Origin: Austropuccinia psidii
Taxonomy: Eukaryota > Basidiomycota > Pucciniomycetes > Pucciniales > Sphaerophragmiaceae
DNA: 64,000 nucleotides
Direction of reading: 5' to 3'
Assembly: GCA_023105745.1 (NCBI GenBank)
Contig: JALGQZ010000011.1
Coordinates: forward strand, 20,300,975-20,364,974
The translations under genes and the position numbers were made by a program. This document shows positions 53,301 to 55,240 of the stretch, piece after piece (the first letter of the stretch is position 1; each line of letters starts with the position of its first letter). The notes beneath the pieces were generated by a model. It was given only the letters and a program-made list of their open reading frames with translations. It had not been told where the DNA came from and made no database searches.

Positions 53301-55240
53301 CCAATTTTGGTTCTGGTGGTTACTTCTTCTAGTATATTGATAATATCTTCTGCTGAAGATTGTTCAGTAGTCCTGCTTTTGACAGCATGCTCTAAGTCAC
53401 CTCCACATTGTCTCAGAATTTTTCTATGGATCATAAACTCTGACATGTCAGGATATAATGCTGTTAATCTGTGCTTTTGTTGGCAAAACCATGGTAAAGC
53501 TCTGTCTTTATCAGCATTAAATTTGGCAGATTCAAAGGCTGTTTCAACTTTAAACCTCCAAGCATCATTTGCCCATTTGTTGATGATTTGGGTTTTCCAC
53601 CAAGTCCAACTCTGGTGTCCATGTGCTTGTCTTATTTTGATGTACCATCTGTGAGCTGATCTGGTAAACAAGGTGTTAAACCTGGCTGTTACCAATCTGT
53701 CTGGTAATTCAAAATCCTCTTTGATCATGTCAATACCTCTAATGAATTCCATATGGTCATACTCTCCTTCACCACTGAAGTGAGGCCATTCTTTAAGTTT
53801 TGGAACTTCTTTCAAGAGTGCTTGGCCCATTGATGGTTCCAAGTTATGAAAAGAAGTGGATAATTCATTTTTTAATTGTGAATTATCAGGATCCAATACT
53901 TGTGGATTTGGAATTCTTGTGCCCTCATTTTGATTTAGAGGTGTAGACATTCTTGGTAAGGTGTTCAGTATTTGTTCAATGTCATTCATTTTACTGTTGC
54001 TACACCTTTGGGAATTTCTGTATTCATGTTGGAAGCTTTGTATTAAATTTATTACTTCAATTTTATACATGTCTTCCTTATGTGTCAGTTCTTGCCATAA
54101 CTCTGTCTGTCTTGTATTATCAGCAGTGACTTGATTCAATTTCATTGATAATTTTGATACTTCTTCTTGTGAAGCATCAAAACACTTTTTCAAGGCAATG
54201 GTATATGTCTTTACTTCAGTAAATGAATTTGAAATGTCATCAAGGACTTTCTTGTTATCTGTTTTGATAATATTTATGGCTTGTTTAATTCTTGTTTCAA
54301 TCATGTCATCAATATTGAATTTAGAATATTTATCTGTTAATTCTTTAATAATGGCAGCTTGTTCATTTATTTTAATGTTAGAAGAATTGTCATTATTAGA
54401 ATTTTTAATTGTTCTTAAAACTTTTTCAAAACACATAAGTGTTTCATTAATTTGGCACAGACTCAGGTTGTTTGTTTTAATGTTGTTACAAATGGTGTCA
54501 TTTTTATCAGAAAGATGTTTTTTCACGTCATTTATAGCATTATACAACTCTGGGATGGAATCAAATATGTCAGAAATCATTTCTGGAACCTTAATCTGGC
54601 TTCCTCCTTCTTCTGTAATTCCATCATGGTTCTGGCCATCTGAAATACATTTTCCATGGCATCCTGCTGAATCTTTGGGATTCTGTAGCCCTGGCTGTAA
54701 GGTTTTGGGGCTGGTGCCTTCCCTTTGCCCTTGTTTGGAGTTTGTGGCTGCTTTTTCACGTTGGAATTGCTGCTGCTGGCCACTGGGGCTGTTTTTGGCA
54801 CTGGTTTGGGTGGTGGAGGGTTGTTTTTCCTCCATTCTAGTGTCAAAAGCATCATGTTTTTCTTCTCCATCAATGGATGCCATCCATTGAGCAATTTGCA
54901 AGTGTTGGGATGGCCCAAGAATTTTCTTACTGTCAGGTAAGAATTCATGCAGTTTTTCCACAGATCTGCCAGGATCTGGTACTCCTTGTACTGCAGTGCA
55001 TTGTTGTAAGCTTTGTGGCTGGCTTTGTATATGTCCACTGAGGCTTCTTGTGGCGGTGTCAGCTCTTTTTGAAGGTAAAATGGTATTATCAGCTTCAGAA
55101 TGACCCATTTTAGTTGTTTGGAAGTCATCAACTGACCCTTTTCCTTCTGTACCTGGTTGGCCTCTGCCATAATCACGTCTATTACCTTTTTGGGAGCTGC
55201 TTGAGGGGTTGTAGCTGGCTCCTGATCTGGTTGAAGGCAT
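50282..55240 (-). CDS. Fam2 gag-protease-RT-RNase H-integrase polyprotein (1652 codons, 3' frameshift)
   Basis: ATG at 55240 (MPSTRSGASYN). Residues 1-200 are low-complexity and overlap a +1 ORF. Coiled-coil-prone sequence lies at about 230-470. The capsid-like core is about 485-640 (FSGEGEYDHMEFIRGIDMIK). The zinc knuckle is 687-700 (CHICQSTTHSANTC). The protease aspartate is D808, but the motif is LLLDPGAFCSC, with proline for the usual serine of DSG. RT has VGDFRALNTYTVPDRYPIPK, and YIDD at 1156-1159. RNase H has LYIDASGDGLGAALHQ. The integrase HHCC finger starts at H1539, and the first catalytic D is 1609 (MDWVTG). The last about 20 residues, after VDRFSKI, are out of frame because of the 1-bp deletion near 50335-50342. 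It is the longest open gag-pol in the window and the best reference copy. With the frameshift and the DPG protease it is probably inactive itself. Confidence 0.92.
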   Translation of the reverse strand: MPSTRSGASYNPSSSSQKGNRRDYGRGQPGTEGKGSVDDFQTTKMGHSEADNTILPSKRADTATRSLSGHIQSQPQSLQQCTAVQGVPDPGRSVEKLHEFLPDSKKILGPSQHLQIAQWMASIDGEEKHDAFDTRMEEKQPSTTQTSAKNSPSGQQQQFQREKAATNSKQGQREGTSPKTLQPGLQNPKDSAGCHGKCISDGQNHDGITEEGGSQIKVPEMISDIFDSIPELYNAINDVKKHLSDKNDTICNNIKTNNLSLCQINETLMCFEKVLRTIKNSNNDNSSNIKINEQAAIIKELTDKYSKFNIDDMIETRIKQAINIIKTDNKKVLDDISNSFTEVKTYTIALKKCFDASQEEVSKLSMKLNQVTADNTRQTELWQELTHKEDMYKIEVINLIQSFQHEYRNSQRCSNSKMNDIEQILNTLPRMSTPLNQNEGTRIPNPQVLDPDNSQLKNELSTSFHNLEPSMGQALLKEVPKLKEWPHFSGEGEYDHMEFIRGIDMIKEDFELPDRLVTARFNTLFTRSAHRWYIKIRQAHGHQSWTWWKTQIINKWANDAWRFKVETAFESAKFNADKDRALPWFCQQKHRLTALYPDMSEFMIHRKILRQCGGDLEHAVKSRTTEQSSAEDIINILEEVTTRTKIGSSRVNLKTRFNTPWKDSVDKNPKENSGNIKYKSADTVRKCHICQSTTHSANTCPKRGKINEIDIEKEPDVEKEDIIEDNSDDKSSIFSESSKDIENINATFDIMESYSHLPQLSNGQVDLSKVQDAQLMKTKPNRGKGYTAGNSCITEVVIDNKPTKLLLDPGAFCSCVGKSFLKTCVPNFEDQLLPIDGIKFNSASNPMKALGIFETNVIFPHINGNSRITVEFVVMENCSSTHFILGNDYLIMYGIDLHNNKDRYFTIGDNKRQKFAFLPFKRQITVNKVSPVNLELEKFKSEQLNEAEISLHLTDKQENELSSLLYDHKGAFATDKEPLGAIIGHEVDIILNIEKPYPPLLRRPAYPASPKSREALEIHIKELLDLGVIRKVGHNEEVEITTPVIVAWHNGKSRMVGDFRALNTYTVPDRYPIPKIQIALTQISQAVYITTMDALKGFHQNVVTPRARKSLRIIVHCGVYEYLRMPFDIKNAPSHFQRMMKEIFPEELSEGWLIIYIDDIIICSKTWEEHMYRLSRVLTKIQSVNMKISLKKCHFGFKELKALGHVVSGLSLGIDKNKVAAVLLKPMPQNKKEIQSFLGFAGYYRQHIKDFASIARPLYKLCDKDTVFEMTVDRVKAFESLREALTTAPLLLMPDFKLPFKLYIDASGDGLGAALHQVQIMNDKPVEGPICFISRQIKPTEARYGASQMECLCLVWALEKLNYFLEGCVFEVITDCTAVKSLLNMKTPNRHMLRWQIAIQEYRGNMTIVHKDGNIHKNADGLSRWPLPNNIDNPAYVPEEASPQIPIEGISVTDLNTTFFEEVRNSYTQDKNCSILCQLLNKDCKDNSLIHALDEVWRKSYNEGRFHLLDGIIYHRTKHTCVMTVVDRSLINLVLKECHDSPFSGHLSEDRTREKVKTCIWWPMWQKDVAEYCKTCDRCQKANKSTGKRLGNMMKIQEPNRPWEIVHMDWVTGLPPGGDRSYNACLVIVDRFSKIQSFYHVTKMIQPWIQLF
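54577..55170 (-). CDS. +1-frame ORF overlapping gag (Fam2 copy, intact, 197 codons)
   Basis: First ATG at 55170, 70 bp downstream of the gag ATG, in the +1 frame, ending at 54577-54579. Blocks: a hydrophobic N-terminal stretch (MTSKQLKWVILKLIIPFYLQ), the helical region (DLWKNCMNSYLTVRKFLG), GW.P (LLNGWHPL), a proline- and lysine-rich linker (PNKGKGKAPAPKP), then YSQGYRIPK and NVFQMARTMMEL. These match the Fam3 (331-915) and Fam1 (25625-26188) frames block by block, while the overlapping gag frame is Q/S/P-rich. The short gap between the two start codons would allow leaky scanning (inference). Family not recognised. Confidence 0.6.
   Translation of the reverse strand: MAEANQVQKEKGQLMTSKQLKWVILKLIIPFYLQKELTPPQEASVDIYKASHKAYNNALQYKEYQILADLWKNCMNSYLTVRKFLGHPNTCKLLNGWHPLMEKKNMMLLTLEWRKNNPPPPKPVPKTAPVASSSNSNVKKQPQTPNKGKGKAPAPKPYSQGYRIPKIQQDAMENVFQMARTMMELQKKEEARLRFQK

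What the first reader, a model, noticed from the sequence alone, without database searches (positions are those of the whole stretch)
54577..55170. A second, conserved protein frame hidden inside gag in four element families
Seen directly: in Fam2 (54577-55170), Fam3 (331-915), Fam1 (25625-26188) and Fam4 (4512-5114, and again near 58178-58570) an ORF of about 187-200 codons overlaps gag, always in the +1 frame. Its protein shows the same ordered blocks (helical half with NSYL..KFLG, GW.P, basic linker, GYRIPK and MARTxME in Fam1-3; a more distant version in Fam4), while the overlapping gag frame is Q/S/R/P-rich low complexity. Fam3 and Fam1 copies are about 64 percent identical over 90 residues in this frame. 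Inference: this is a real overprinted gene, perhaps an accessory or the ancestral matrix-like domain, with the main gag frame the derived one. I know of no described family with these motifs.
Basis: partly seen in the sequence, partly recalled or inferred. Interest (0 to 1): 0.88.

Follow-up and report, generated by a model that had tools for sequence, protein, structure and literature searches.

The report
Splicing switch hides gene inside gag
Retrotransposons that crowd the genome of a rust fungus, likely the myrtle rust fungus, carry a second gene hidden in another reading frame of their main gene; selection preserves it, and its protein is predicted to be made only when RNA splicing cuts out the main gene's start signal and builds a new one.

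Summary
The +1 frame is real, but it is not a simple ORF: it is the end of a spliced gene. Fam1, Fam2 and Fam3 have exons 2-4, with exons 3-4 overlapping gag; Fam4 has the same layout with one intron found. The gag start codon lies inside intron 2, 14-20 nt before its acceptor. Exon 2 has no in-frame ATG; its acceptor reads AG|TG. In copies sampled by pol, shared substitutions are mostly synonymous in the spliced frame (Fam2 exon 4: 23 of 33, 7.8 expected; Fam1: 23 of 28, 8.0 expected), not in the gag frame; singletons look neutral. Yet gag stays nearly stop-free over the overlap (0 of 2000 codon shuffles do as well). One genomic copy (L127) lacks all three introns exactly, and its first junction creates ATG TCT; 18 genomic places carry the spliced Fam4 junction. 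So splicing removes gag's AUG and, in Fam2, makes the accessory AUG: a two-way switch. RNA and protein were not examined. The function is likely Rev/CERV-like handling of unspliced genomic RNA (weakly supported). Closest known: CERV of C. elegans Cer1.

The parts
55715..56664 (-). Fam2 5' LTR
   Evidence: 99.4% identical to 47455-48404
55697..55714 (-). Fam2 primer-binding-site-like block TTTGGGGGCCCAGCCGTG at the LTR end
   Evidence: same block in Fam1 and Fam3 and in 11 of 12 Fam4 copies
55489..55567 (-). Fam2 intron 1 (GTGAGG..TTTTAG, 79 nt); exon 1 ends at 55568 with A, its start is unknown
   Evidence: precisely absent from genomic copy L127; coordinates; donor GTGAGG unchanged in 19 of 19 RT-sampled copies
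55291..55488 (-). Fam2 exon 2, coding, no in-frame ATG of its own; begins TG, so ATG forms at the exon 1-2 junction
   Evidence: shared variants 22 of 27 synonymous vs 8.3 expected; junction ATG seen in L127
55227..55290 (-). Fam2 intron 2 (64 nt), contains the gag start codon
   Evidence: absent from L127; donor GTAAGT in most other copies, GTAGGT here
55238..55240 (-). Fam2 gag ATG, 14 nt before the intron 2 acceptor
55137..55226 (-). Fam2 exon 3, +1 to gag
   Evidence: no significant constraint on its own
55065..55136 (-). Fam2 intron 3 (72 nt), translated only as gag
   Evidence: absent from L127; 19 of 72 sites variable vs 46 of 487 in exon 4
54577..55064 (-). Fam2 exon 4, +1 to gag, to the stop
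   Evidence: shared variants 23 of 33 synonymous in this frame vs 7.8 expected
50282..55240 (-). Fam2 gag-pol main frame (ends early in this copy; longer copies have about 1985 codons)
   Evidence: RVT_1 and RT_RNaseH
1160..1318 (-). Fam3 exon 2
   Evidence: shared variants 10 of 16 synonymous vs 3.4
1095..1159 (-). Fam3 intron 2, gag ATG at 1106-1108 inside
963..1094 (-). Fam3 exon 3
900..962 (-). Fam3 intron 3 (stops in the +1 frame, so it must be removed)
   Evidence: spliced in 44 of the 120 listed Fam3-like MF-1 gene models
331..899 (-). Fam3 exon 4
26442..26557 (-). Fam1 exon 2 (frame broken in this copy)
   Evidence: intact in other copies
26380..26441 (-). Fam1 intron 2, gag ATG at 26391-26393 inside
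26245..26379 (-). Fam1 exon 3
26179..26244 (-). Fam1 intron 3
25625..26178 (-). Fam1 exon 4 (one stop in this copy)
   Evidence: other copies: shared variants 23 of 28 synonymous vs 8.0
4040..4339 (+). Fam4 exon 2 (starts TGGAAGAA after AG)
   Evidence: shared variants 23 of 32 synonymous vs 8.3
4340..4407 (+). Fam4 intron 2, gag ATG at 4388-4390 inside
   Evidence: spliced junction found at 18 genomic places, control 0
4408..5114 (+). Fam4 exon 3, +1 to gag

Best explanation
These Ty3/gypsy-type retrotransposons carry a second, spliced gene whose last exons overprint the start of gag in the +1 frame, and it is predicted to be translated only from RNA in which splicing has cut out the gag start codon and assembled a new one. 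Full-length unspliced RNA has almost no AUG between the PBS-like block and gag, so ribosomes would start at gag and make Gag-Pol. Intron 1 ends just before exon 2 (AG|TG) and, in Fam2, the exon before it ends in A, so joining them makes AUG; intron 2 contains gag's AUG and is removed; intron 3, where present, joins the rest in the +1 frame. One RNA would thus serve either as Gag-Pol message and genome or as accessory-protein message, not both. Shown: exon layout, selection on the spliced frame, stop avoidance in gag, genomic copies of the spliced form. Inferred: translation of each RNA, and the same exon 1 arrangement in Fam1, Fam3 and Fam4. Likely but weakly supported: the product, with a predicted helical part, a basic linker and a C-terminal helix, acts on the element's own unspliced RNA (export or packaging), as Rev and CERV do.
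For: Genomic copy L127 lacks all three Fam2 introns exactly, starts ATG TCT GAC at the first junction and lacks the gag ATG (reversed-pattern control 0). 18 places carry the spliced Fam4 exon 2-3 junction, 6 exact, control 0. Selection in pol-sampled copies: Fam2 exon 4 shared variants 23 of 33 synonymous in the spliced frame vs 7.8 expected (p=2.7e-8), gag frame 6 vs 7.1, singletons 5 of 15 vs 3.5; Fam1 exon 4 23 of 28 vs 8.0 (p=6.8e-9), gag 5 vs 8.1. Exon 2: Fam4 23 of 32 vs 8.3, Fam2 22 of 27 vs 8.3, Fam3 10 of 16 vs 3.4, Fam1 7 of 8 vs 2.1. Gag frame keeps fewer stops than any of 2000 shuffles in each of four families. AUG scarcity from the PBS-like block to gag: Fam2 0 vs 6.2 expected, Fam3 1 vs 7.4, Fam1 1 vs 9.7, two Fam4 copies 2 vs 12.4 and 2 vs 13.4. 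Splice sites kept in 19 of 19 aligned RT-sampled Fam2 copies. Elements chosen for a full-length Gag-Pol frame keep the spliced frame: 8 of 8 Fam2, 11 of 12 Fam1. Gene models of a separate assembly (MF-1) carry the same junctions.
Against: No RNA or peptide was examined. Exon 3 alone shows no significant constraint in either frame. Exon 1 is located only for Fam2, from one genomic copy; in Fam1, Fam3 and Fam4 the partner of exon 2 was not read. The transcript start in the LTR is unknown, so AUGs in the R-U5 part were not counted; 3 of 17 Fam2 and 2 of 11 Fam1 leaders read have one ATG, and 10 of 11 Fam4 leaders have one to three. 3 of 30 Fam3 copies have AGTT instead of AGTG at exon 2, and 2 of 12 Fam4 copies lack AG|TG. 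Intron 3 evolves faster than exon 4 in Fam2, but in the Fam1 sample it is not faster than exons 2 or 3 (7 of 66 sites against 15 of 117 and 17 of 135; exon 4 density not computed there). In Fam4 exon 3 singletons show the same excess as shared variants (25 of 63 vs 15.8; 26 of 68 vs 16.3), as its protein-based sampling would give. L127 itself has two stops in exon 4. The function rests on architecture and analogy only; the models are low-confidence and match nothing significantly.
Confidence: 0.82

Rival explanations
1. The +1 ORF is translated from unspliced RNA by leaky scanning, reinitiation or frameshifting; no splicing is needed.
For: An ATG lies in the +1 frame 70 nt after gag's in Fam2, and several MF-1 models start at or near it.
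Against: Exon 2, outside gag and without in-frame ATG, is under coding constraint in the same phase; in Fam3 and Fam1 the +1 frame is blocked within intron 3 (for Fam3, third-frame stops upstream of exon 4); in Fam2 intron 3 evolves faster than exon 4; spliced genomic copies exist.
Confidence: 0.07
2. The open +1 frame is a by-product of low-complexity gag codons; no second protein exists.
For: The gag region is Q/S/R/P-rich; given the gag protein, the +1 frame has as few stops as observed in 1-5% of shuffles per family.
Against: Substitution patterns are those of the +1 frame, not gag; exon 2 lies outside gag and shows them too.
Confidence: 0.02
3. The spliced product is structural or restrictive (a Gag-like matrix or RNA chaperone, or a copy-number brake like Ty1 p22), not an RNA-export factor.
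For: A basic linker and helices would suit an RNA-binding or Gag-interacting protein; p22 of Ty1 is a known gag-derived restrictor (recalled).
Against: It shares no reading frame with Gag, and no Gag-like match was found. These do not exclude it.
Confidence: 0.4
4. The introns are cryptic host splicing that damages the element; the spliced frame is kept for another reason.
For: Spliced genomic copies found are few (1 and 18) against 15,009 to 66,702 first-look candidates, which could mean rare splicing, though spliced RNA may simply be packaged poorly.
Against: Donors and acceptors are kept across families and most copies; the phase is preserved across each junction; AUGs are avoided.
Confidence: 0.06

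Closest known systems
CERV of Cer1, a Ty3/gypsy-related element of C. elegans (PMC10309623, passages read)
   Same: A spliced, five-exon mRNA of an LTR retrotransposon encodes a novel protein; one exon overlaps gag in another frame; the unspliced RNA makes Gag-Pol.
   Different: CERV exons 1-3 share gag's frame and its exon 5 is in the polyprotein frame; here no coding exon is in gag's frame, exon 2 precedes gag, gag's AUG sits in an intron, and in Fam2 the start codon is made by splicing. No sequence comparison was made.
Rev/Rex-type regulators of complex retroviruses (recalled; Rev also described in PMC10309623 passages)
   Same: Small product of multiply spliced RNA, basic region, overlaps a structural gene; spliced RNA lacks the gag AUG.
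   Different: Rev overlaps env/tat, not gag (recalled); no homology search against Rev was made beyond Pfam and PDB; export activity untested here.
BARE (PMC3735527, start of abstract in listings) and other elements with spliced gag RNA
   Same: Distinct RNA pools of an LTR retrotransposon.
   Different: As recalled, those splice to favour Gag over Pol; here splicing removes gag's start and yields another protein.
sORF1/sORF2 of Drosophila MDG1-group elements (PMC11952523, passages read)
   Same: Accessory proteins in LTR retrotransposons (MDG1 group, listed under Metaviridae there).
   Different: The passages report no evidence of splicing; sORF2 is a membrane protein; not described as overprinted on gag in the passages read.

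Membership tests
Ty3/gypsy LTR retrotransposon | paired LTRs | tested here: met
   Fam2 950-bp LTRs, 99.4% identical
Ty3/gypsy LTR retrotransposon | reverse transcriptase and RNase H domains | tested here: met
   Fam2: RVT_1 1.4e-20, RT_RNaseH 9.4e-29
Ty3/gypsy LTR retrotransposon | integrase after RT (gypsy order) | tested here: inconclusive
   Tf2-1-like SH3 above cut-off 8.6e-12, integrase core rve_3 0.0064, below its cut-off; the piece lies after RT
Ty3/gypsy LTR retrotransposon | Gag with CCHC knuckle | tested here: met
   zf-CCHC 1.2e-4, above cut-off, in the Fam4 ORF 7649-9640; only weak, below cut-off, in Fam1 and Fam2
CERV-type accessory gene | made from spliced RNA of the element | tested here: met
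   introns precisely absent from genomic copies; RNA itself not seen
CERV-type accessory gene | an exon overlapping gag in another frame | tested here: met
   exons 3-4
CERV-type accessory gene | N-terminal exons shared with Gag in frame | tested here: not met
   exon 2 precedes gag; exons 3-4 are +1
CERV-type accessory gene | nuclear export of genomic RNA | not testable with these tools
   needs experiment
Rev/Rex | leucine-rich export signal and RNA response element | not tested
   no scan made
retroviral matrix / Gag domain | matrix or Gag fold or sequence | tested here: inconclusive
   no Pfam match above cut-off, no significant PDB-sequence or Foldseek match; model poor, mean pLDDT 58.7

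The most novel reading that the evidence does not exclude
A double start-codon switch: the dominant retrotransposons of a gigabase rust genome hide an accessory gene from unspliced RNA by splitting its AUG across a splice junction and hide gag from spliced RNA by placing gag's AUG in the next intron. The product would be a fungal Rev/CERV counterpart that carries intron-bearing genomic RNA out of the nucleus, evolved independently of retroviruses and part of the reason for these elements' success.
Probability: 0.35. Interest if true: 0.93.

Novelty: new variant of a known kind. Interest (0 to 1): 0.84.

Why it matters
It shows a compact, testable logic by which one RNA of an LTR retrotransposon could be committed either to Gag-Pol or to an accessory protein, with no AUG shared. 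It would add fungi to the few lineages with spliced accessory genes in Ty3/gypsy elements, gives a case of gag overprinting in which gag is the unconstrained frame, and bears on how such elements could fill a 1-Gb fungal genome. It also says that many hypothetical proteins of the A. psidii MF-1 annotation are pieces of spliced retrotransposon genes.

Tried and rejected
U5 site A|GTACT as the exon 1 donor: conserved in Fam1-3 and it would also give AUG, but L127 shows that Fam2 used A|GTGAGG in the leader; rejected for Fam2. Leader donor in Fam4 (AA|GTAAGT, in all 11 of 12 copies in which the PBS block was found) is a prediction; the reads that would show it did not complete. A second possible acceptor TTTTTAG|GCGT about 50 nt after it (7 of 11) was not resolved. 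TGA/ATG overlap at the Fam2 stop as a reinitiation signal: by eye not shared by Fam3, Fam1 or Fam4.

Structure: A1 model pLDDT 58.7, A3 model 45.1; Foldseek no match at E<=0.001; not used as evidence of fold. Other rusts: the three protein searches list only the best 120 of 583, 913 and 989 hits; of the 360 listed, all but one (P0360, source ena, unnamed) are named A. psidii MF-1, so taxonomic range is unknown. Search for spliced Fam3 copies not answered; none was made for Fam1.

Caveats on counts: L001-L030, L032-L061 and L083-L106 were found by the +1 protein (L031 and others chosen from those lists), so their exon 4 (Fam4: exon 3) substitution counts are biased and are not main evidence; exon 2 was in no query. 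In those biased sets: Fam3 exon 4 36 of 65 synonymous in the spliced frame vs 16.8 expected and 10 vs 16.6 in gag. The Fam1 set was chosen for long Gag-Pol frames; L107 in it has ACG at the gag start and L108 a stop in the spliced frame; both stayed in the counts. L066 and L070 (frameshifts) were dropped before the counts (17 copies left of 19 aligned, of 20 fetched; L076 holds no such region). In one search the Fam2 '0 intact' is my script's error (exon end one base short): 30 of 31 have no internal stop. In one search the Fam1 start was set 4 bases early, so its columns are shifted and the per-frame table is unusable; nothing is quoted from it. The junction counts rest on text patterns that I chose by eye. 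Searches failed, timed out.

Papers: PMC10309623, PMC11952523, PMC8063080, PMC12210899 passages; the others search listings only (PMC12774611 was asked for, which failed, and not read). Not-in-print claims rest.
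Full report
Setting. The window is part of a 1.015-Gb genome in 84 contigs. Of the 360 listed homologues of the +1 proteins, all but one are named Austropuccinia psidii MF-1 hypothetical proteins, so the host is likely A. psidii, whose genome is published as just over 1 Gb and mostly Gypsy elements (PMC8063080, passages). 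The species is inferred; the genome carries no name. Fam2 is a Ty3/gypsy-type element: 950-bp LTRs 99.4% identical, RVT_1 and RNase H domains followed by a Tf2-like SH3 domain.

The +1 frames are there. Interfamily comparison aligned on the +1 protein gives 59.5% identity in +1, 35.4% in gag and 37.0% in the third frame for Fam3/Fam1, with differences at +1 codon positions 1/2/3 of 58/41/95; Fam3/Fam2 68/51/95 and Fam1/Fam2 64/48/92. Gag is nevertheless kept readable: shuffling synonymous codons of the +1 protein puts a mean of 6.4 to 10.3 stops in the gag frame, and 0 of 2000 shuffles reach the observed number in any of the four families (observed 0 in Fam2 and Fam3, 1 in Fam1, 2 in Fam4, whose stretch begins before gag's ATG). 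So one frame is conserved in sequence, the other is only kept readable.

It is a spliced gene. Upstream of gag lies an open stretch (exon 2) in phase with the +1 frame across an intron that contains the gag ATG, 14 nt (Fam1-3) or 20 nt (Fam4) before the acceptor. A further intron inside gag (intron 3) interrupts the +1 frame with stops in Fam3 and Fam1, and in Fam2 holds faster-evolving sequence: 19 of 72 sites variable against 46 of 487 in exon 4, Fisher p=2e-4. In the Fam1 sample intron 3 is not more variable than exons 2 and 3 (7 of 66 against 15 of 117 and 17 of 135). Intron 2 is 62-68 nt and intron 3 63-72 nt; every junction is phase 1. Predicted proteins are 258 aa (Fam2), 286 aa (Fam3), 272 aa (Fam1 copy L112). 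The window's own Fam2 donor GTAGGT is a variant: 25 of 31 copies read GTAAGT and 4 more GTAAG, and 17 of 19 pol-sampled copies read GTAAGTT.

Selection. To avoid choosing copies by the very frame tested, I used a reverse-transcriptase query for Fam2 and a protease-region query for Fam1. For Fam2, 20 overlap regions were fetched; 19 aligned; all seven signals read at the expected place in 19 of 19 (intron 2 donor GTAAG or GTGAGT); 16 of 19 have an intact spliced frame and 16 of 19 an open gag frame. In exon 4, variants shared by two or more copies, which passed through replicating elements, are synonymous in the spliced frame in 23 of 33 cases against 7.8 expected (p=2.7e-8) and in the gag frame in 6 against 7.1; variants seen once are 5 of 15 against 3.5. 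For Fam1, 12 elements chosen for Gag-Pol frames of 1920-1924 codons were read: 11 of 12 keep the spliced frame (one of the 12 has ACG at the gag start); shared variants 23 of 28 against 8.0 (p=6.8e-9), gag 5 against 8.1, singletons 11 of 34 against 7.7. Eight Fam2 elements chosen for 1985-codon frames all keep it. The contrast of shared and single variants is an internal control: constraint acts on replicating lineages and stops after insertion. Fam4 exon 3, sampled by its own protein, does not show the contrast (26 of 68 shared against 16.3, 25 of 63 single against 15.8). The p-values treat variants as independent, which shared ancestry weakens.

Exon 2 is the independent test, since it lies outside gag and was in no query. 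Shared variants are synonymous in the predicted phase in 23 of 32 (8.3 expected) for Fam4, 22 of 27 (8.3) for Fam2, 10 of 16 (3.4) for Fam3 and 7 of 8 (2.1) for Fam1; singletons do not depart significantly. Exon 3 alone shows nothing significant in either frame. Decayed copies exist: Fam3 25 of 30 intact; Fam4 internal stops in 2 of 12, with gag-frame stops in 5 of 12; among 12 Fam1 copies found by the +1 protein, L098 and L105 lack the exon 2 region and L100 and L106 have internal stops.

The start codon. Exon 2 has no in-frame ATG in the window copies. From the PBS-like block to gag's ATG there are 0 ATGs in 473 nt of Fam2 (shuffle mean 6.2; 1 of 500 shuffles as low), 1 in Fam3 (7.4; 2 of 500), 1 in Fam1 (9.7; 0 of 500), 2 in each of two Fam4 copies tested (12.4 and 13.4; 0 of 500). 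Across copies, 14 of 17 Fam2 and 9 of 11 Fam1 leaders that could be read have none; the 11 Fam4 leaders have 0 to 3. In the Fam3 and Fam1 window copies the single ATG lies 6 and 5 nt before gag's. Exon 2 begins TG directly after the AG in all four families (31 of 31 Fam2 and 19 of 19; 27 of 30 Fam3; 12 of 12 Fam1; 10 of 12 Fam4). I therefore predicted that splicing to an exon ending in A makes the AUG, and looked for genomic copies of spliced RNA.

Spliced copies. A pattern for the joined exon 2-exon 3 of Fam2 (27 letters, up to 3 mismatches) has one match in the whole genome and none for the reversed control. The locus, L127, has an LTR, the PBS-like block and a gag part, and lacks introns 1, 2 and 3 exactly..TTATAA|TGTCTGAC....CCAATA|GTCAGGAGCC....GAAAAGG|AGCTGACACC..; windows of 24 letters over the predicted junctions of another copy match it with 2, 1 and 0 mismatches. 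The first junction reads ATG TCT GAC; the gag ATG is gone; no ATG precedes it from the PBS-like block on. It defines intron 1 of Fam2 as 79 nt with donor A|GTGAGG, unchanged in 19 of 19 pol-sampled copies. The natural explanation is reverse transcription and integration of a spliced RNA. For Fam4 the joined exon 2-exon 3 pattern matches at 18 places (6 exact), control 0; whether these are independent events, and what precedes exon 2 there, could not be read. Three precise losses in one copy are hard to get otherwise. In addition, gene models of the separate MF-1 assembly carry the same junctions by my text patterns: 44 of the 120 listed Fam3-like models for intron 3, 25 of 120 Fam4-like for intron 2, 16 and 24 of 120 Fam2-like for introns 2 and 3, while 57 of the Fam2-like read through intron 3. 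These are predictions; I did not find how they were made.

How it most likely works. Unspliced RNA: the first useful AUG is gag's, giving Gag-Pol and genome. Spliced RNA: gag's AUG is gone, an AUG exists only at the exon 1-2 junction, giving the accessory protein. Each message hides the other's start. That both RNAs are translated so is inferred. What the protein does is open: it has a predicted helical N-terminal half, a lysine-rich linker and a C-terminal helix (poor models), no Pfam match above cut-off and no significant PDB-sequence or fold match. An element that must export RNA with unremoved introns needs a bypass; Cer1 uses CERV for this (PMC10309623, passages), retroviruses use Rev. 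I rank RNA export or packaging first and give that part well under even odds.

Known or new. The closest case is CERV, also spliced and overlapping gag in another frame in one exon. It differs in sharing in-frame exons with gag. I found no report of such a gene in rust elements, of gag's AUG inside an intron, or of an AUG assembled by splicing in a retrotransposon in searches, which cover open-licence papers only and show listings.

Noticed in passing
55697-55714, 1691-1708, 27092-27109 (-); Fam4 copies L083-L087, L089-L094: The LTR-end/PBS-like block TTTGGGGGCC is shared by four families, although Fam4's accessory protein shows no sequence homology to that of Fam1-3; this suggests one primer tRNA and related leaders.
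   Followed up: partly
27156-27173, 1756-1773, 55751-55768 (-): A conserved U5 block GAGGACAG-CATAGTACT is followed by a small hairpin whose arms differ in compensating fashion between Fam1 and Fam3 (read by eye); role unknown now that it is not the Fam2 splice donor.
   Followed up: partly
G000:C2:43878257-43881283 (L127): A fully spliced copy with an LTR exists, so spliced RNA was likely packaged, reverse-transcribed and integrated.
   Followed up: yes
18 places, e.g. G000:C4:53390860-53390888: Spliced Fam4 junctions occur 18 times; they could be independent insertions or one spliced lineage that multiplied.
   Followed up: no
A1 profile and model m61f796a3fbf8: Both the sequence profile (2cpt, Vps4b, E=0.083) and Foldseek (2w2u, 2v6y, E 2.5-3.2) list Vps4-type MIT domains among their weak hits for the helical half. 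Not significant; perhaps only generic helices.
   Followed up: no
50282-50339: The window's Fam2 gag-pol frame ends at 1658 codons and resumes in another frame inside integrase; many copies have 1985 codons.
   Followed up: no
G000:C1:69863870-69880987 and similar: Some Fam2 copies occur in head-to-tail series spaced about 8.26 kb, as expected of tandem elements sharing LTRs.
   Followed up: no
57675-58387 and 58615-59327: Fam4 gag fragments form a 713-nt inverted repeat, 96% complementary, with 227 nt between the arms.
   Followed up: no
30948-31237 and 31468-31676: Tandem arrays with units of 58 and about 30 nt.
   Followed up: no
MF-1 proteins such as P0011, P0033, P0051, P0060, P0092, P0095: UniRef names some of these accessory proteins 'No apical meristem-associa(ted)', likely a spurious label; Pfam gives no such match for P0011 or P0095 here.
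   Followed up: partly
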